From the NCBI GenBank assembly GCA_016125285.1, contig WGMA01000042.1, positions 1-64,000 on the forward strand: DNA of 64,000 bases, in the 5' to 3' direction. Made by a program: the position numbers and the translations under genes. Under the pieces are notes generated by a model. That model was not told where the DNA came from. It did not search any database and saw nothing but the letters and a program-made list of their open reading frames with translations. Within the stretch, counting starts at the first letter, position 1; every line of letters starts with the position of its first letter. This DNA is from Phycisphaera sp. Its GTDB lineage: Bacteria; Planctomycetota; Phycisphaerae; Phycisphaerales; Zrk34. Positions 8,995 to 24,619 of this stretch are shown piece by piece.

Positions 8995-10317
8995 TCACTG
9001 CAAATTGCCAGCGGGTGACAATCCGGCGACGCGTTCAGCCTTCCGACCCGTGAACTTCTCCCACCTCTGCACGATCACATCGCAGTACAGCGCGTCGAGT
9101 TCCATCAGGTAGGCGTTGCGCCCGGTCTGCTCGGCGGCGATCAGCGTGCTGCCGCTGCCGCCGAACAGGTCCAGCACGTTCTCGCCGGCGAGTGATGAGT
9201 ACTGCAGGGCGCGGATCGCCAGCTCGACGGGCTTCTCCGTGAGGTGAACCATCGACTGCGGGTTGACCTTCTTCACCGACCAGACATCGGGCACGTTCGC
9301 CGGGCCGTAGAACTTGTGCGCGGCGCCTTCACGCCAGCCGTAGAAGCACCACTCGTGGTTGCCCATGAAGTCCTTGCGCGTCAGCACCGGGTGCTGCTTC
9401 ACCCAGATCAGGGCCTGCGAGAAGTACAGCTCGCATCGCTTGAGCACCGGCGGGTAGTTGGCGCAGTTCGCGTATCCGCCCCAGATGTAGAAGCCCCGGC
9501 CGGGTGCGAGCACGCGCGCGATGTTGCCGAACCAAGCGTCGAGCAGCTTGTCGAACGCCTCGTCGGTCACGAAGTCGTTGGCGAGCGGCCGGTCCTTGGC
9601 GCGGAGCTTCTTCTGCGTGGGCTTGGACTTCTCCGGGTGCCGTGCAAGGTCCATCGACTGGTGATGCGTAGTGGATTGGAAGGACGACAGCCCAGCGGCG
9701 ATCGCATTGTTGCTGCGCGGTTCGACCTTCACGTTGTACGGCGGATCGGTGTTGACCAGGTGAACGACCGCACCATCGAGTAGGCGGTCGACGTGCTCGG
9801 GGTTCGAGCTGTCCCCGCAGAGCAGGCGATGATTGCCGAGCACCCACAGGTCGCCCGGGCGCGTCGTCGCCTCGTCCGGTGGCGCCGGCACATCGTCGGG
9901 ATCGGTCAAACCCTGCTCGACGTCGCCGGACATCAGGCGCGTCAATTCCTCGGCATCGAAGCCGAGCAGGCCCAGGTCGTAGTCCATCTCACGCAGCGCC
10001 GACAGCTCGATCGGCAGCAGCTCGTAATCCCACTCGGCGATGCTGGCCGTCTGGTTGTCGGCGATGCGGTACGCCTTGATCTGCGCCGGGGTCAGGTCCG
10101 TGGCGACATGCACCGGCGCCTTCGCCAGCCCCAGCTTCTGCGCCGCCTTGTAGCGCGTGTGCCCGACGATGATCGCGCCTTCGGTATCCACCACGATGGG
10201 CTGGCGGAATCCGAACTCGCGCAGCGACGCGGCGACGGCGTCCACCGCCTCATCGTTCTGTCGCGGATTGCCGGGGTAGGGTTTGATCTGGTCCAGGGGA
10301 CGGAGTTCGATCTTCAT
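8995..10317 (-). CDS. ParB-like nuclease domain fused to beta-type DNA methyltransferase
   Basis: This 440-residue protein has ParB/Srx-like residues 1-100 (IKPYPGNPRQND, GFRQPIVVD, IIVGHTRYKAAQKLG, AYRIADNQTA). Residues 155-430 form an N4/N6 amino-DNA methyltransferase. The catalytic DPPY (in NTDPPYNV) precedes the AdoMet loop VLDLFGGSGST, which is the beta arrangement. Such fusions are frequent in phages and usually methylate phage or host DNA without a partner endonuclease. CAGGAG lies before ATG 10317. It follows the hairpin array on the same strand as the replication genes. Target sequence cannot be told from the protein. Confidence 0.9.
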   Translation of the reverse strand: MKIELRPLDQIKPYPGNPRQNDEAVDAVAASLREFGFRQPIVVDTEGAIIVGHTRYKAAQKLGLAKAPVHVATDLTPAQIKAYRIADNQTASIAEWDYELLPIELSALREMDYDLGLLGFDAEELTRLMSGDVEQGLTDPDDVPAPPDEATTRPGDLWVLGNHRLLCGDSSNPEHVDRLLDGAVVHLVNTDPPYNVKVEPRSNNAIAAGLSSFQSTTHHQSMDLARHPEKSKPTQKKLRAKDRPLANDFVTDEAFDKLLDAWFGNIARVLAPGRGFYIWGGYANCANYPPVLKRCELYFSQALIWVKQHPVLTRKDFMGNHEWCFYGWREGAAHKFYGPANVPDVWSVKKVNPQSMVHLTEKPVELAIRALQYSSLAGENVLDLFGGSGSTLIAAEQTGRNAYLMELDALYCDVIVQRWEKFTGRKAERVAGLSPAGNLQ

Positions 10318-10581
10318 GGGAAGCTCCTGAGGGGATGTTTTTCACGAAAGAAAGTCAGTCGAACATGGCGACCGTTCCCGCCGCCATCTCCGGCCCGATC
10401 CGGCCGGGAAGGAACCATCGCCGCCGAGTTATCCACTGCCAGACTGGCAGATTGTGGGTATCTCGAACTTTCGCCCACGTTGGGCCGTGTCGCGCCGGTC
10501 GCGGGGTGGTACGGTTGGCCAAGGCAGGTCCAGGGTTCGCCACGTGGGCCAACGTGGGCGAACCGTCGGCAAGGTGCCGCC
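10318..10581. other. Non-coding space with a further inverted repeat
   Basis: No convincing gene lies here. Around 10531-10566 GGTTCGCC and GGGCGAACC bracket an imperfect inverted repeat. A related TTCGCCCACGTTGG occurs near 10469-10482. The stretch continues into the hairpin array to its right. Confidence 0.5.
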
Positions 10582-10788
10582 CGATTCGTTTGGTGCGCCA
10601 AACGAATCGTCCTGATCGCGGGGCACGCCGGAGCTGGTCCGTTTCGTTTTGTGTGCGCCCCTTTAGGGGCGCACAAAACGAAACGAGACCCGGCGTGCGG
10701 CTTTCGTTTTGTGCGCTGCGGGCGGCGCACAAAACGAAACCACCAGCGATTTGTTTTGTGCGCACCAAACGATTCACAAAACGAAATC
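10582..10788. repeat. Array of four related hairpins downstream of the primase gene
   Basis: Hairpin 1 (10582-10609) has perfect 12-base arms CGATTCGTTTGG and CCAAACGAATCG. Hairpin 2 (10641-10684) has arms starting GTTTCGTTTTGTG and ending CACAAAACGAAAC, with a GC-rich apex and a two-base bulge. It is embedded in a longer repeat (GCACGCCGG near 10623, CCGGCGTGC near 10690). Hairpin 3 (10702-10739) has perfect 15-base arms TTTCGTTTTGTGCGC and GCGCACAAAACGAAA. Hairpin 4 (10748-10788) has GATTTGTTTTGTG and CACAAAACGAAATC. All share CGTTTTGTG or CGTTTGG. The last ends one base from the primase stop codon. Possible roles are a replication origin, protein-binding sites or mRNA 3' structures. Confidence 0.85.
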
Positions 10789-12795
10789 TCATGACTCGTC
10801 CTCCTCGCCTTCGAGCGCCGTACCTGGGGCGCTTCCGGGGGTTCCGGGGCGCTGGTAGGTCGAGGGTTGGTTGCGCTTGCCCGTCCCGTGGCGCAGCACG
10901 AGCCCGTCGCTGTCCGCCGTACGAAGCAGGTTGTCCGCCGCCCACCTCGACAGGCCCGCGCGTATCGCCTTGCTGATGATGGCCGATCGCGTGGCCGGCT
11001 CGTCATCGACGAACGCTTCGACGAACGACTCGGGCGACCACTCGTCCTTCTTCTCGCTGCGTTTTCGCCCGCCATCCGATCGCAGTTGCGCCGGGTCCAG
11101 GTCGTCCGCGGGCGACCAGACGGGGAACGACCAGCGCAGGCAGCGCGGGGCAACCGGCGGCCACGATCGCACCGCGGCGTCGACTACGACGGCGTCGTCC
11201 TCCTCGTGCGGGCGCAAGACCATGTGCGTGTCGGTGGCGCGGCTCTGGCTGCCGGCGCCCGCGCCGACGTCGGTCACGCTCTTGGCCGACTGGTTGCCCT
11301 TGGTCGTGTGGTGGATCAGCACGAACGAGCAGCCCAACCGGTCCGCGTAGCGGTCGAGGTGGTTGTAGAGCGACGCCATCGTCCCGTTGTCGTTCTCATC
11401 CATGTCGCGCGGCATGAAGCGGTAGAAGGCGTCGAGGATGATCACCTTGAACCTGCCTGGCTCGAGCGATTGGAAGTACGCGCCGAGCGAGAACACGTCC
11501 TGCAGGTGCCCGCGGAGGTTCTGCACCCACACGCGGTCGGCGTAGGCGTCGACGGGTACTTGCCGCGCGACGGCGACCTTGGGGATGCGGTGGGCGCTGG
11601 TCTCGCCGTGCAGTTCGTTGTCGAGGATCAGCACGTCGCCGCGCTCGCAGCGGAACTGACCGAGCCAGTCGCGGCCCGTGGCCACCGAGATCGCCAGGTC
11701 GGTGACGAGCCACGACTTGCCCGTCTTGGGGCTGGCGATCAGGTTCATCGTCTCGCCCTCGCGCAGCAGGCCGTGGATGACCGGTCGTCGCAGCGCGGGG
11801 AACTCGGCGACGAGGGCGCGCACCGTCAGCGGCTCGAGCTGCGGTTGCGGCGCTGCGGGCGGACCGGTTGCCGACCCACCGAGGGATGTCGTGGGAGGCG
11901 ACGAGCCGTAGCCCTGAGATCGCAGCGCCGAGGCGGCGCGCGTGTAGTCGCCGCCGTGTTCGAGATGCGCGTACACGGCGAACGGCGAGTAGGCCCGGTT
12001 GGGCTCGAAGGGCGCGGCGTTGGCGCTGAAGACGTAGAACACACCGTCCTTGAGCGTGCCGCTCCATCCGTGGGATTTGCCGGGCCGGCGCCAGTACTCG
12101 TTCTCGCCGCCGCGCACGCACGACCAGCCGCAGCGCTCGAGGACAGCACGAACGTCGCCGCGTGTGTTGAAGTCATCGCCGGGCCTGACGGCCGTCTCGC
12201 CCAGCGGAGTGGAATGCACCCCGTGGTTCGGTCCGTCGATCGCCGGCGGCACAAACTCATTCAGTTCCCATGCCGCCTGGAGCAGCGTGTCGCGTTCGGC
12301 CTCGGTGAGCACGGGCAAGTCGCACAGGTCGCCCTGGATCAGTTCATAACCGGAGGTCGGCGCGCACAGGAACAGACCGCCTTCGCCCCGGGTCTCGATG
12401 AGCGTGACGACCTTCTGGCCGTCGTGGCGCTGGGCGAGCTTGAGGTTACCGCAGATCTCCGCTTCGCTGCGGTAGATGACGTGGTAGCCGCCCGAGGGCG
12501 TTTGCTCGACGACCAGTCTGTCGCGCAGCTCCGGCGGTATACGGTCCCACCATGCCGCGAAGAGTTCGCCGGCAGCGTCGAAGTCGATGATCTCGGTGTT
12601 CAGTGATGCGCGGCCACAGAGAACACACAGCGCGTCATGATTGTTAGCGAACCACGCCGACACCTCATCCGCCGTGGGCGGACGATCCCTGTACTGCTTC
12701 CACGAACCGACCGCCGGGCGCTTCTCAGCGCGTCGCGCGGGCAGCACGGCCAGGCCGGCTTGCTGGTACAGGATTGCGGTGTCGCGCAGGTGCAT
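10789..12795 (-). CDS. Bifunctional primase-polymerase / RepA-type helicase
   Basis: This 668-residue phage replication protein combines two activities. Residues 1-200 form a prim-pol domain (LPARRAEKRPAVGSWKQYRD, IIDFDAAGE with the acidic pair, TPSGGYHVIYR). Residues 330-560 form a RecA-like ATPase of the AAA_25/RepA type: Walker A ASPKTGKS, Walker B FKVIILDAFY, and the sensor segment CSFVLIHHTTKGN. A winged-helix-like tail follows. It would make primers and unwind the phage genome. The start codon overlaps the helicase operon closely: its GAGGAG lies at the stop of the upstream gene. The hairpin array begins right after its stop codon. Confidence 0.9.
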   Translation of the reverse strand: MHLRDTAILYQQAGLAVLPARRAEKRPAVGSWKQYRDRPPTADEVSAWFANNHDALCVLCGRASLNTEIIDFDAAGELFAAWWDRIPPELRDRLVVEQTPSGGYHVIYRSEAEICGNLKLAQRHDGQKVVTLIETRGEGGLFLCAPTSGYELIQGDLCDLPVLTEAERDTLLQAAWELNEFVPPAIDGPNHGVHSTPLGETAVRPGDDFNTRGDVRAVLERCGWSCVRGGENEYWRRPGKSHGWSGTLKDGVFYVFSANAAPFEPNRAYSPFAVYAHLEHGGDYTRAASALRSQGYGSSPPTTSLGGSATGPPAAPQPQLEPLTVRALVAEFPALRRPVIHGLLREGETMNLIASPKTGKSWLVTDLAISVATGRDWLGQFRCERGDVLILDNELHGETSAHRIPKVAVARQVPVDAYADRVWVQNLRGHLQDVFSLGAYFQSLEPGRFKVIILDAFYRFMPRDMDENDNGTMASLYNHLDRYADRLGCSFVLIHHTTKGNQSAKSVTDVGAGAGSQSRATDTHMVLRPHEEDDAVVVDAAVRSWPPVAPRCLRWSFPVWSPADDLDPAQLRSDGGRKRSEKKDEWSPESFVEAFVDDEPATRSAIISKAIRAGLSRWAADNLLRTADSDGLVLRHGTGKRNQPSTYQRPGTPGSAPGTALEGEEDES

Positions 12796-20836: not shown

Positions 20837-23800
20837 TTAGCCGGGCGTGCCCTTGGCGGAATGATACTCGGCGGTCAGGGTCTCGACCTTGGCCTTCGCT
20901 TCGTCGACGGCCTTGCGTGCCTCGGCGATCTGCCCCTCGGCCTGCTGGGCTTCTGTGGTGGTGCGTTTGATGTTGGACTGGGCGACCTCGAGGCGCTTCG
21001 GCGCGGTCTCGATGGTCTTGCGGGCGTCGGCCAGCGCGGTCGTGGCTTCGTCGAGCTTCGCCTTGGCCGCGGCGTACGCCTTCTGGTCCTTGTCGACTTC
21101 GGCGCGGGCGGTGGCGACCGCCTTGTTGGCGGCGTCGAGTTCACCCTTGGCCTTGGCCAACGCATCGGTGGCGGCCTTGTGCGCGCCCTCCGCGTCGGCG
21201 AGCGACTTGGCTGCGGCGTCGAACGCGGCCTTGGCCTTGTTCGTGGCGTCGGCCAGCGGCTGGTATTGTTTGACCAACTCGGCGACCGCGTCGGCTGCCT
21301 GCTTCGCTTCGTTCTGACGCGCCGCGAGCGCGGCCTCGCTTTCCTTCATTGCTTTGTCGGCCGCGGCAACCGCGGCTTCGGCGGCCTTCCGCTCGCCGTC
21401 GATCTTCGCAAGGGCCGCGTCGGCGTTTTTGCGTTCGCCGTCGATCTTCGCAACGGCGTCGGCGAGGGGCTTGTACTCACTGTCGATCTTCGCGGCGGCG
21501 TCGGCGAACTGCTTGTGCTCCGCGGCGGCCTTGGCTTCGGCGTCGACGAGCTGTTTGTGTTCCGCTTCGAGCCTGGCGACGGCGTCGGCGAGCGCCTTGT
21601 CATCGGGCTTGCCTTGCGCGGCGGCTTTCGCCTGATTCAGCGCGTCGAGCTTGGTCTTCGTCGAGGCCTGGGCCGCGACGAGGGCGTCCTGTCGGGCCTT
21701 GGCGTCGGCCTGAGCCTTGGCCAGCGCATCCTGCTTCGCCTTGGCGTCGGCTTGCGCCTTGGCCAGCGCATCCTGCTTCGCCTTGGCGTCGGCCTGCGCC
21801 TTGGCGAGCGCGTCCTGCTTGGCCTTGAGGGCGTTGCGGGCGTTGTCGAGTTCCTTGTGTTTGGCGTCGCGTGCGGCGACGGCCTGCGCCGCGGCGGCGT
21901 CCTTCGCCTTCTGGGCCTCCTTCGCCTTGTTCAGTTCCGCGAGCTTGGCGCCGGCGTCGGCGTTGGCCTTGTTCATCGCGTCCTGCACCGGCTTCACCGC
22001 GGCACGCGCCTTCTCGACGATCCCGGCCTTCGCCTTGACGTCCGCGTCGGCCTTCGCCATGGCGTCGGTCTTCGCCTTCGCGTCGGCCTCCGTCTGCTGC
22101 AGTTGCTTGCGCGCGGCGTCGAGTGGGGCGGCGAGCTTGTCGGACGCCGCCTTGAGCTGCGCGACGGTCTGCTCGTGCTGCTTGATCTGCTCGGGGACCT
22201 CGCCCATGTCCTTCTGCGCCTTCTGGGCGTTGAGGCGGGCCTGATCCGCGGCGGCCAGCGAGCTCTGCATCTGCTCGGTCACGGATTCGAGCTGCGACTG
22301 ACGCTGGGTCAGCTCGATCCGCGCGGCGTAGAGGCGGGTGTACACCTTGCCAGCCTCGTACCGCCGCAACTCACGCCGGGCGTCGGCGACCGCGTTGGCC
22401 GGGCCGTCGAGCGTCGCGAGCTGGGCCTTGGCGTCGGCGACCGCCTTGGCCAGCGCGGGCATCGATTTGCCGAGCTGGTCGAGTTCCGCCTTGGCCTGCT
22501 TCAACGCCGCGTCGGTCGCGCCGTGGTCGGCGACGAGCTTCTTCTGCTTGTCGATCGCCGCGGCGTACGCGTTGGCGGCCGCGTCGCGCTTCTGGTTCGC
22601 GTCGTTGTTCGCCGCGGTGGCCTTCGCGACGTTCGCCTCGGCGGTCTTCGCCTTGCCGTCGAGGTCCGCGATCTTCTTGTCGGCTTCGGCGAGCGTGGAT
22701 TTGATCATGGCGAGCGCGGCCTTCGCGGCCTCGGCGGCCTTGACGACGTCGGGCAGTTCCGAGCCGCTCTTCGCGGCCTCGTCCGCCGCCGCGGCCGCCT
22801 TTTCCGCCGACGCCAGCGACGCCTGCGCCTGATCACGCTGCTTGACCGCTTTACCGTGTTCCACGACCGCGCCGGCGTGCGCCTTCTTCGCGGCGTCGAG
22901 GGCCTGCGCGAGTTTGTCGGCCTCTGCCTTCGTCTGATCCATCGCCTTGTGGGCGTTGTCGACCTCGCCCTTGACCTGTTCCACGTGCTTGGTCAGCGAC
23001 GCGAGCTTGGCCTCGTTGCCCGTGATCGACGCCTTGAGCTCGCCGTCGCGCTTCTGCGCCGCCGCGAGGTTCGCTTCGGCGTCTTGCACGGCCTTCTGCA
23101 TCGCCGGTCGCTGCGCCGCGGCCTTGTCCGCCTCGGCCTGAAGCGTTGCGATCCGCTTGTTGACGTCGTCGATGCGCATCGCGAGCGTCGCGGGGTTCTG
23201 CGCGAGATCGGCGAGACGCTTGCCGTCGGCGACGTTCCACACGCGGATGTCACCGGTCCACGCGCCGCCGATCGCCTTCGTCCCGTCGTGGTTGAACGTC
23301 GCGCTGAGCGCCAGGTCGTCAAACGCCTCGAAGTCACGCACCTTCTTGCCGTCGCCTTCCCACACGGTGACCTTCTTGTCACGACCGGCCGAGATCAGAC
23401 GCCCGTCGTGGGTGAACCGCAGGTCGAGCACGCCGCCGCCGTGGGCGTTCCACGACTTGATCTGGTTGCCGTTGAACATGTCCCACAGCTTGATGGTGCC
23501 GTCTTCGCTCGCCGACGCCATCACGTTCGAGTCGGCGCGCCAGGCGATCGCGGTGATCGCGTCTTTGTGACCGGTCAGGTCGTAGAACAGCTGGCCGTTC
23601 GCCGCCTCCCACACGTGCAGCCCGCCGTTGCGATCGCCGCTGGCCATCAGCACGCCGTCCGGGCTGAACGCCAGCGACATGACCCAGTCGGTGTGCTTCT
23701 TGATGAAGTAGACCTGTTCGCCGGTCGCGGTGCTGAACGCCTTGACAAGCTTGTTGGGGCCGCCGATAGCGATCATCGTCTGCTGCGGGTTGATGTCCGC

Positions 23801-24619
23801 GGCGAGCACCGAGTCGTACTCGTCGCCAACCTGGATGATGCGCTGGGCGGTCTTCACGTCCCACACGACCGCGAGCCCGCGATCGGCGCCGCGCCCGCCC
23901 GCCGCGAGCAGCAGCTTGCCGTTGCGGCTGAAGCGCAGCACATCCGGGAAGCCTTCCTTGAACGGCAGCACGCCGACGTACTGTGCCTTGTCCGTGTCGT
24001 ACAGCACGACCTGGTGCTCGCCGCCGATCGCCAGCAGCGGGTTCCATGGGTTGTGCGCGATGGCCGTGACCGCGTCACGCTTCGGCGTGTAAACGACCGG
24101 CTCCATCAGCACGTCGTCGGGCATCGGCGGCGGGTCTTTGGGCTTGCCGGCCGACGGCGCCGCCAGCGCGAGGTTCATCTTCGGCTTGCTCAGCGGCTTG
24201 GCCTTCGAGCCGGAATTCTCCAGCAGGCCCGTCTCGATCCACGCCTTGATCAGCGCGATCTGCTTCTCGTCGATCTTCGGCTTCTTCGGCGGCATGTTCG
24301 GCTCTTCCTCGTGATTGACGACGAGGAACAGCGTTGAGTCCGCGGGGTTGCCCGACGAGACGATCTCGCCGGAGCTCGAGCCCGCCATCAGGGCCGCGTA
24401 GTTGGTCAGGTCGAGGTCGGCTTTGCGCTTGTCGGGGTTGTGACAGCTGTCGCAGTGCTCACGGAAGATCGGCTTGATCTGATCCTGGTACGTGATCTTC
24501 TCAGCCGCGTCAGCATGGATGGACGTCGCGCCGACGCACAGCGCGGCGAGCATGACAGCGGTCACCCGGCCGCGCGGAGCGGCGCCGTATGTGTCGTGAG
24601 TATTCATTTCGAACTTCAT
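20837..24619 (-). CDS. Exported planctomycete cytochrome / WD40 / long coiled-coil protein
   Basis: This 1,260-residue protein starts at ATG 24619 with AAGGTG six bases upstream. A signal peptide (VTAVMLAALCVGATSIHADA) is followed by a planctomycete cytochrome-type domain with haem motif CDSCHN and later NMPPKKPKI. WD40 repeats run from about 190 to 470 (for example MASGDRNGGLHVW, MASASEDGTIKLWD, DIRVWN). The last 780 residues are Ala/Lys/Asp-rich heptads, predicted as a very long coiled coil with three 14-residue tandem repeats. It is the last gene of the DUF1501-PPC-DUF1549/1553 operon. Such operons are abundant in planctomycetes and their biochemical role is not settled. An exported, possibly surface-spanning scaffold is inferred. 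Confidence 0.88.
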   Translation of the reverse strand: MKFEMNTHDTYGAAPRGRVTAVMLAALCVGATSIHADAAEKITYQDQIKPIFREHCDSCHNPDKRKADLDLTNYAALMAGSSSGEIVSSGNPADSTLFLVVNHEEEPNMPPKKPKIDEKQIALIKAWIETGLLENSGSKAKPLSKPKMNLALAAPSAGKPKDPPPMPDDVLMEPVVYTPKRDAVTAIAHNPWNPLLAIGGEHQVVLYDTDKAQYVGVLPFKEGFPDVLRFSRNGKLLLAAGGRGADRGLAVVWDVKTAQRIIQVGDEYDSVLAADINPQQTMIAIGGPNKLVKAFSTATGEQVYFIKKHTDWVMSLAFSPDGVLMASGDRNGGLHVWEAANGQLFYDLTGHKDAITAIAWRADSNVMASASEDGTIKLWDMFNGNQIKSWNAHGGGVLDLRFTHDGRLISAGRDKKVTVWEGDGKKVRDFEAFDDLALSATFNHDGTKAIGGAWTGDIRVWNVADGKRLADLAQNPATLAMRIDDVNKRIATLQAEADKAAAQRPAMQKAVQDAEANLAAAQKRDGELKASITGNEAKLASLTKHVEQVKGEVDNAHKAMDQTKAEADKLAQALDAAKKAHAGAVVEHGKAVKQRDQAQASLASAEKAAAAADEAAKSGSELPDVVKAAEAAKAALAMIKSTLAEADKKIADLDGKAKTAEANVAKATAANNDANQKRDAAANAYAAAIDKQKKLVADHGATDAALKQAKAELDQLGKSMPALAKAVADAKAQLATLDGPANAVADARRELRRYEAGKVYTRLYAARIELTQRQSQLESVTEQMQSSLAAADQARLNAQKAQKDMGEVPEQIKQHEQTVAQLKAASDKLAAPLDAARKQLQQTEADAKAKTDAMAKADADVKAKAGIVEKARAAVKPVQDAMNKANADAGAKLAELNKAKEAQKAKDAAAAQAVAARDAKHKELDNARNALKAKQDALAKAQADAKAKQDALAKAQADAKAKQDALAKAQADAKARQDALVAAQASTKTKLDALNQAKAAAQGKPDDKALADAVARLEAEHKQLVDAEAKAAAEHKQFADAAAKIDSEYKPLADAVAKIDGERKNADAALAKIDGERKAAEAAVAAADKAMKESEAALAARQNEAKQAADAVAELVKQYQPLADATNKAKAAFDAAAKSLADAEGAHKAATDALAKAKGELDAANKAVATARAEVDKDQKAYAAAKAKLDEATTALADARKTIETAPKRLEVAQSNIKRTTTEAQQAEGQIAEARKAVDEAKAKVETLTAEYHSAKGTPG
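21701..21826. repeat. Three 42-base tandem repeats in the coiled-coil region
   Basis: Units begin at 21701, 21743 and 21785, each starting GGCGTCGGC and differing at a few bases. A partial unit precedes them. On the coding strand they encode AKAQADAKAKQDAL-type 14-residue repeats, two heptads each, so length changes here would keep the coiled-coil register. Confidence 0.9.

What the first reader, a model, noticed from the sequence alone, without database searches (positions are those of the whole stretch)
10582..10788. Four related hairpins in tandem directly after the phage primase gene
Hairpins with arms of 12-19 bases share CGTTTTGTG/CACAAAACG but differ in apex and spacing, so the stems are conserved as structure. 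They sit in a 471-base non-coding island between primase/helicase and methyltransferase genes. Candidate roles: replication origin with primase recognition hairpins, partition-like sites for the ParB domain protein, or RNA structures.
Basis: partly seen in the sequence, partly recalled or inferred. Interest (0 to 1): 0.62.

Follow-up and report, generated by a model that had tools for sequence, protein, structure and literature searches.

The report
Self-matched phage replication origin
A patch of DNA hairpins right behind a viral DNA-copying gene is most likely the virus's replication start site, and comparison of over a hundred related viruses suggests that the tail of the neighbouring enzyme reads it like a matched lock and key.

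Summary
The hairpins are real. The 471-nt island (10318-10788) begins at the stop codon of a prophage PrimPol/RepA-like helicase gene and carries inverted half-sites TTTCGTTTTGTGCGC as nested hairpins (DNA-fold z = -10.5). CGTTTTGTGCGC occurs in the 6.1-Mb host genome only here and in one sister prophage.

In 115 related islands the same place carries such arrays (best 8-mer 4.3 copies; 1.9 in shuffles, 2.1-2.2 in flanking genes), but the half-site sequence switches between lineages. Which half-site is present tracks the enzyme's C-terminal winged helix (r = 0.70; partial 0.64; 0 of 1000 permutations), not its primase domain (0.11) nor the neighbouring ParB-methyltransferase (partial ~0). The best-associated residues lie at the start of the predicted recognition helix and in the wing. 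A second clade (PrimPol + DUF3987) gives the same result. Stem covariation is strictly Watson-Crick, so DNA rather than RNA.

Best explanation: a cis-located replication origin bound by the C-terminal winged helix of the initiator-helicase-primase encoded just upstream; a new variant of the pRN1 stem-loop-origin and P4-alpha kind. Binding and initiation are inferred. A parS role and an RNA role are disfavoured.

The parts
10789..12795 (-). PrimPol-AAA_25 (RepA-like helicase) replication protein, 668 aa; proposed initiator. Its stop codon abuts the hairpin array.
   Evidence: Pfam Prim-Pol PF09250 5e-11 (res. 10-148), AAA_25 PF13481 4e-33 (res. 316-502); PHROG DNA polymerase/primase and primase families; helicase part ~30% identical to IncQ RepA helicases
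10846..11040 (-). C-terminal winged-helix domain of that protein (about residues 586-650), the proposed reader of the half-sites
   Evidence: AlphaFold2 on 55 tails: a1, short b1, a2, a3, b2, wing, b3; core pLDDT about 90; Foldseek and VIA-align hits are winged helices; tracks the motif
10906..10947 (-). Predicted recognition helix a3 (residues 617-630); R617, W618, D621 and N622 are among the positions best associated with the motif
10748..10788 (.). Hairpin 4, first after the stop codon: GATTTGTTTTGTG / CACAAAACGAAATC with a one-base bulge; its loop holds a degenerate half-site
10702..10739 (.). Hairpin 3: 18-nt arms, 94% complementary
10640..10685 (.). Hairpin 2, the central one: CGTTTCGTTTTGTG-GCGCCCC-TAAA-GGGGCGC-CACAAAACGAAACG on the PrimPol-sense strand, with a 2-nt bulge
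   Evidence: strong Watson-Crick covariation over 14 relatives
10623..10698 (.). Outer stem enclosing hairpin 2: GCACGCCGG...CCGGCGTGC; lies outside the half-sites but also covaries
   Evidence: 5 of 9 pairs with changes on both sides
10582..10609 (.). Hairpin 1: CGATTCGTTTGG-TGCG-CCAAACGAATCG, variant half-sites with both arms changed together
10470..10562 (.). Long inverted repeat TTCGCCCACGTTGGGCC / GGCCAACGTGGGCGAA in the distal half of the island; role unknown
   Evidence: 25-nt arms, 84%; kept in the sister prophage
10429..10460 (.). TTATCCAC-TGCCAGACTGGCA-GATTGTGGGTA: DnaA-box-like inverted pair around a TGCCANNNTGGCA palindrome
   Evidence: TGCCANNNTGGCA counted 38 times in islands against 2 and 0 in flanks
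10341..10416 (-). Second conserved element before the methyltransferase: GGTTCCTTCCCGGC...GCGGGAAC...GACTGACTTTCTTTCGTGAA; possibly a packaging (cos-like) or leader element
   Evidence: found in 30 of 97 islands across different half-site lineages
8995..10317 (-).
   Evidence: no partial correlation with motif

Best explanation
The array at 10582-10788 is the replication origin of this prophage and works as a matched pair with the replication protein encoded immediately upstream. The C-terminal winged helix of the PrimPol-RepA-type helicase protein binds the inverted TTTCGTTTTGTGCGC half-sites. Binding of several copies opens the region, perhaps by extruding the DNA hairpins. The fused helicase loads on the exposed strand, and the fused primase makes the first primer in or near the central hairpin, whose apex is C-rich on the PrimPol-sense strand. 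Shown here: the array, its restriction to one locus per prophage, its conserved place in relatives, covariation as DNA, and co-variation of site sequence with recognition-helix and wing residues. Inferred: physical binding, unwinding, cruciform extrusion and initiation.
For: (1) Position and confinement: in 115 islands downstream of PrimPol genes the best 8-mer averages 4.3 copies against 1.93 in shuffles and 2.17/2.10 in coding flanks; 77 of 115 are matched by at most 1 of 100 shuffles, and most copies lie within about 270 nt of the stop. 133 hairpins in islands against 5 in equal lengths of upstream coding DNA. (2) The half-site sequence switches between lineages and tracks the C-terminal tail: r 0.70, partial 0.64 given primase and AAA domains, 0 of 1000 permutations; primase domain r 0.11, partial 0.03. 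The signal sits in the winged-helix part (r 0.76), not in the linker (partial -0.04) or the methyltransferase (partial 0.04). (3) Best-associated columns are W618, R617, D621, Q643: start of predicted a3 and the wing. (4) Not simple hitchhiking: L162/L232 share the motif with tails 93% identical in protein but 58% at 4-fold sites; L207/L208 differ in motif with 76% protein and 85% 4-fold identity. (5) Independent repeat in a PrimPol+DUF3987 clade: partial 0.63, 0 of 1000. (6) Precedent: in pRN1 a stem-loop of about 100 nt starting 54 bp after the prim-pol/helicase gene is required for replication (PMC4234260).
Against: No binding or replication data exist. GC skew shows no clear switch at the island. 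38 of 115 islands lack a significant array. Other PrimPol phages (Arthrobacter Shambre1 and Constance, Cellulophaga Calle_1, Mycobacterium Yinz) have no comparable island. Mantel-type tests can be inflated by shared ancestry, and the C-terminal codons lie next to the array. Arrays bound by a winged helix could also be operators.
Confidence: 0.78

Rival explanations
1. The array is an operator: the winged helix binds there to control transcription of the methyltransferase-terminase genes or to autoregulate, and replication starts elsewhere.
For: It is a winged-helix binding array located upstream of the next gene; conserved elements follow it before the methyltransferase.
Against: The reader domain is fused to a primase and helicase; the array lies 3' of its own gene; its distance to the methyltransferase varies from about 260 to over 1900 nt; no sigma-70-like promoter was found at 10300-10850, although that scan does not cover other promoter types.
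Confidence: 0.1
2. The hairpins are single-strand initiation sites of the RSF1010 ssi kind, recognised by the primase domain itself after something else opens the DNA.
For: Hairpins next to a primase; the helicase domain resembles IncQ RepA; RepB' binds ssiA hairpins (PMC4434180); C-rich apex elements are strand-specific.
Against: The primase domain does not track the half-site: pairs with 92-96% identical primase domains differ in motif, and pairs with unrelated ones (2-3%) share it. The apex elements could still be primase sites, so this may hold for part of the region.
Confidence: 0.08
3. Partition or centromere-like sites (parS-like) for the ParB-domain methyltransferase.
For: The adjacent gene has a ParB_N domain.
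Against: Neither half of the methyltransferase tracks the motif (partial 0.01 and -0.03; 0.04); four significant arrays have no methyltransferase in the DNA held downstream.
Confidence: 0.02
4. A structured RNA or transcription terminator at the end of the PrimPol transcript.
For: Strong fold on the sense strand (RNA z = -7.6) and covariation of stems.
Against: Pairs change by strict Watson-Crick replacement; the only G-U cells are at the loop-closing apex pair. Over 133 hairpins mismatches are G:T 24, A:C 32, with no excess of wobble. Rfam: no match near threshold. Terminator-like sites are at chance level (2 against 1.0).
Confidence: 0.02

Closest known systems
pRN1 stem-loop origin (Sulfolobus plasmid; PMC4234260) and the similar stem-loop noted behind the BIP-1 phage gene
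   Same: Prim-pol, helicase and C-terminal winged helix in one protein; non-coding stem-loop immediately 3' of the gene; structure kept while sequence changes
   Different: Helicase is RepA-like AAA_25 (or DUF3987 in the second clade), not SF3; here there are several hairpins built from repeated half-sites, whose sequence co-varies with the winged helix
Phage P4 alpha protein with ori/crr
   Same: Primase-helicase-initiator whose C-terminal winged helix binds repeats at the origin (as described in PMC4234260)
   Different: P4 alpha has a Toprim-type primase (per PMC4234260); here the primase is archaeo-eukaryotic Prim-Pol and the sites form hairpins next to the gene
RSF1010 oriV (RepA helicase, RepB' primase, RepC iterons, ssiA/ssiB hairpins)
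   Same: RepA-like helicase, AEP primase, repeats plus hairpins
   Different: Three separate proteins in RSF1010; here one fused protein, and half-sites track the winged helix rather than the primase
PrimQH family of mobile-element AEPs (PMC5862659)
   Same: AEP primase, PriCT or similar, RepA/DUF3987 ATPase, C-terminal winged helix; origin recognition by the winged helix was suggested there as a possibility
   Different: No origin or site had been linked to the winged helix in that paper's text as searched here

Membership tests
pRN1-type 3' stem-loop origin | Prim-pol + helicase + C-terminal winged-helix replication protein encoded immediately upstream | tested here: met
pRN1-type 3' stem-loop origin | Long stem-loop directly 3' of the gene, structure conserved with sequence changing | tested here: met
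pRN1-type 3' stem-loop origin | SF3 helicase domain | tested here: not met
   Pfam gives AAA_25, RepA-like
pRN1-type 3' stem-loop origin | Stem-loop required for replication | not testable with these tools
   needs deletion experiments
RSF1010 ssi sites | Hairpin recognised by the primase catalytic domain | tested here: not met
   For the half-sites: primase domain does not track motif. Apex elements not tested
P4 alpha-ori system | C-terminal winged helix reads repeated sites | tested here: inconclusive
   Strong co-variation but no binding assay
P4 alpha-ori system | Toprim-type primase domain | tested here: not met
   Prim-Pol PF09250
parS/ParB partition site | Site read by the ParB-domain protein | tested here: not met
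   partial correlations about 0
PrimQH AEP family | AEP domain with RepA/DUF3987-type ATPase and C-terminal winged helix | tested here: met
   formal placement in the PrimQH sequence cluster not tested
PrimQH AEP family | PriCT-1/2 or Zn-binding domain after the primase domain | tested here: inconclusive
   PriCT_1 found in relatives L069 and L119, no such Pfam hit in the window protein
Structured RNA (Rfam) | Match to a family, or G-U tolerant covariation on the transcript strand | tested here: not met

The most novel reading that the evidence does not exclude
These phages carry a modular origin-recognition code: one replication-protein scaffold with exchangeable winged-helix readouts (recognition helix and wing), each paired with its own hairpin-forming half-site array, plus a strand-specific C5-A(T/C)A-C5 or CCCC-TAAA-GGGG apex where the fused primase starts. 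Sister prophages in one cell could thus replicate independently. The DNA hairpin itself, not only the duplex sites, is part of the recognised structure.
Probability: 0.4. Interest if true: 0.78.

Novelty: new variant of a known kind. Interest (0 to 1): 0.64.

Why it matters
Origins of PrimPol-encoding phages and integrated elements are rarely known. That the C-terminal winged helix of mobile-element AEP primases recognises the origin was raised as a possibility (PMC5862659); here natural variation across more than 100 loci gives a strong computational test and predicts matching protein-site pairs and the residues that set specificity. This can be tested directly with purified domains. It also gives a rule for finding origins in uncultured phages: look behind the PrimPol gene.

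Tried and rejected
Rfam search: no family at its threshold. Similar DNA in 50,697 phage records: none. GC skew: no clear switch. RNA reading: rejected by the wobble test. ParB-methyltransferase as reader: rejected. C6-ATA-C6 as an element specific to PrimPol loci everywhere: rejected; only 2 of 124 sites in a capped scan of viral contigs lay behind a PrimPol match, although inside the islands it is strictly one-stranded (54 forward, 0 reverse). Perfect DnaA boxes: too rare to count as a defining feature. The conserved 2-nt bulge of the central hairpin is not universal (L046, L047, L107 and L305 lack it). AT-rich unwinding region: only a mild rise in A+T from about 0.36 to 0.43. Pfam has no family for the C-terminal tail.

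Full report
1. What is there. The window is the first 64 kb of a 231-kb contig of a 6.1-Mb genome; relatives of the replication protein come mostly from Planctomycetota, chiefly Phycisphaerales, so the host is probably of that group. A prophage occupies the left part: portal, GpA-type terminase, a ParB_N-methyltransferase (8995-10317), a PrimPol-AAA_25 protein (10789-12795), a DEAD-type helicase and RusA, then Sak4 and exonuclease genes, all on the minus strand. The 471-nt island 10318-10788 lies between PrimPol and methyltransferase. Its PrimPol-proximal half holds four hairpins; the second sits in a longer outer stem. DNA folding of 10440-10800 gives -120 kcal/mol, z = -10.5.

2. Not a host repeat. 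The island occurs at two places in the genome: here and, 94% identical, in a sister prophage on another contig whose surrounding genes are about 77-89% identical. CGTTTTGTGCGC occurs six times in 6.1 Mb, three in each island. Two further PrimPol loci in the same genome (C64, C2) have different islands: C64 carries GGGTGAAACG half-sites, C2 a CCCCCCATACCCCCC element and no significant array.

3. Relatives. I collected loci from whole genomes of the order, IMG/VR and GTDB genomes and cut the DNA after each PrimPol stop codon. In 115 distinct islands of at least 200 nt, the commonest 8-mer (both strands, non-overlapping, first 400 nt) has 4.3 copies on average, against 1.93 in dinucleotide shuffles and 2.17 and 2.10 in the coding flanks; 77 of 115 are matched by at most 1 of 100 shuffles. 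Most copies fall in the first 270 nt or so. Architecture is kept, for example positions 23/84/94/117/240 in one group, but the half-site changes: CGTTTTGTG, CGTGGTG, CTGTGTGGTGAG, CTTTCACC, CCTTCACC, AATCCGTCAC, GAGAAAACCG, GCGGAACAA, CGCTCAACCC, CGAACCAA and others.

4. DNA, not RNA. Fourteen central hairpins of the window's group were aligned. 96.5% of cells pair; 14 of 29 pairs show changes on both sides (shuffles 4.0; slid controls 0-4). The outer stem, which lies outside the half-sites, contributes 5 such pairs. The only single-side (G-U) cells are at the loop-closing pair. Over 133 hairpins in 94 islands there are 24 G:T and 32 A:C mismatches; a transcript would favour G:T. The selected object is therefore DNA. 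Two causes remain mixed: each arm is a binding site, and the arms must pair. Covariation of the outer stem and the apex speaks for pairing as well, but palindrome-correcting mutation could mimic this.

5. Who reads the sites. Over 64 loci with full-length PrimPol-AAA proteins, similarity of repeated 7-mers between islands was compared with identity of protein parts. Primase domain r = 0.11, AAA r = 0.44, C-terminal tail r = 0.70; partial for the tail given the other two 0.64, 0 of 1000 permutations reach it; partial for the primase 0.03. Within the tail the signal lies in the winged-helix part (r 0.76; partial 0.68), not in the linker (partial -0.04); the methyltransferase N-terminus has partial 0.04 and its two halves 0.01 and -0.03. 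Among close pairs (AAA at least 93%, primase over 60%), tails are 89% identical when the motif is shared and 64% when it differs (p = 6e-6; the pairs are not independent), while primase identity is 86% and 83% (p = 0.22).

6. Hitchhiking control. The tail codons neighbour the array, so joint transfer could mimic co-evolution. Fourfold-degenerate sites argue against this for key cases: L162 and L232 share the motif with tails 93% alike in protein but only 58% at fourfold sites; L207 and L208 differ in motif with 76% protein but 85% fourfold identity. The methyltransferase on the other side shows no link.

7. Structural sense. AlphaFold2 on 55 aligned tails gives a winged helix with core pLDDT about 90; the listed Foldseek and VIA-align matches are mostly winged-helix DNA-binding domains (Foldseek E-values 0.04 and up, Z at most 8.2, so this supports the fold only). 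Ranking alignment columns by association with the motif, without using the structure, puts W618 (0.68), R617 (0.50), D621 and Q643 (0.46) on top: the first turns of predicted helix a3 and the wing. Region means are 0.30 for a3, 0.29 for the wing, 0.07 for a1 and 0.06 for the disordered part.

8. Independent repeat. In 42 loci whose middle domain is different (DUF3987 in the two members scanned that gave a Pfam hit for it), the C-terminal 110 residues again track the motif (r 0.73, partial 0.63, 0 of 1000). Their arrays have a first hairpin, a stretch with CT and AT runs, and a long second hairpin. In the AAA_25 clades many islands carry C5-A(T/C)A-C5 near the apex of the long hairpin, always on the PrimPol-sense strand (54 forward, 0 reverse). 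Its reader is unknown; a primase start site is my guess.

9. Function. The simplest reading is a replication origin next to its initiator gene. In pRN1, deletion and mutation showed that a stem-loop of about 100 nt, 54 bp behind the prim-pol/helicase gene, is needed for replication, and its structure rather than sequence is kept among relatives (PMC4234260). P4 alpha binds origin repeats by a winged helix (same source). A possible origin-recognition role of winged helices in mobile-element AEPs was suggested in PMC5862659. Among named phages with related helicase domains, Streptococcus phage Javan161 and Paenibacillus phage Vadim also have inverted repeats directly behind this gene (no shuffle test was made), whereas Arthrobacter, Cellulophaga and Mycobacterium phages with a PrimPol gene have no comparable gap.

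10. Limits. No experiment shows binding or initiation. GC skew is uninformative. A third of islands have no significant array, by this simple 8-mer test. Mantel permutations do not fully remove phylogeny; the column ranking, the fourfold control and the second clade reduce but do not abolish this concern.

Noticed in passing
window 10341-10416 (minus strand) and 30 of 97 related islands: A second conserved element before the methyltransferase gene, GGTTCCTTCCCGGC...GCGGGAAC...GACTGACTTTCTTTC, shared by phages with different half-sites. It lies on the packaging-gene side (methyltransferase, then terminase), so a cos-like site is possible.
   Followed up: partly
window 10429-10460; 17 of 97 related islands: TGCCANNNTGGCA palindromes, 38 counts in islands against 2 and 0 in flanks; in the window flanked by DnaA-box-like TTATCCAC / GTGGGTA.
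   Followed up: partly
L207 island position 117 and about 54 of 176 islands: C5-A(T/C)A-C5 element, strictly on the PrimPol-sense strand, near the apex of the long hairpin; the half-site around it differs between loci. What reads it is unknown.
   Followed up: partly
G000:C24, C64, C2 and C44:230136-230540 (outside the window): The same genome carries further PrimPol loci: a sister prophage with the same half-site, one with GGGTGAAACG, one with only the C6-ATA-C6 element, and a fragment with three in-frame TAG codons.
   Followed up: partly
G033:C1 (L183-L196): One genome of the same order has at least 14 PrimPol loci; several share the AGAAAACC half-site at nearly identical spacing, others differ.
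   Followed up: partly
L311 (Streptococcus phage Javan161) 5219-5474; L312 (Paenibacillus phage Vadim) 5243-5500: Named phages with a RepA-like helicase-primase gene carry inverted repeats directly behind it; culturable hosts would make them good test systems.
   Followed up: partly
window 21001-24000: Strong AT skew (-0.58 to -0.21) over a long open reading frame outside the prophage core.
   Followed up: no
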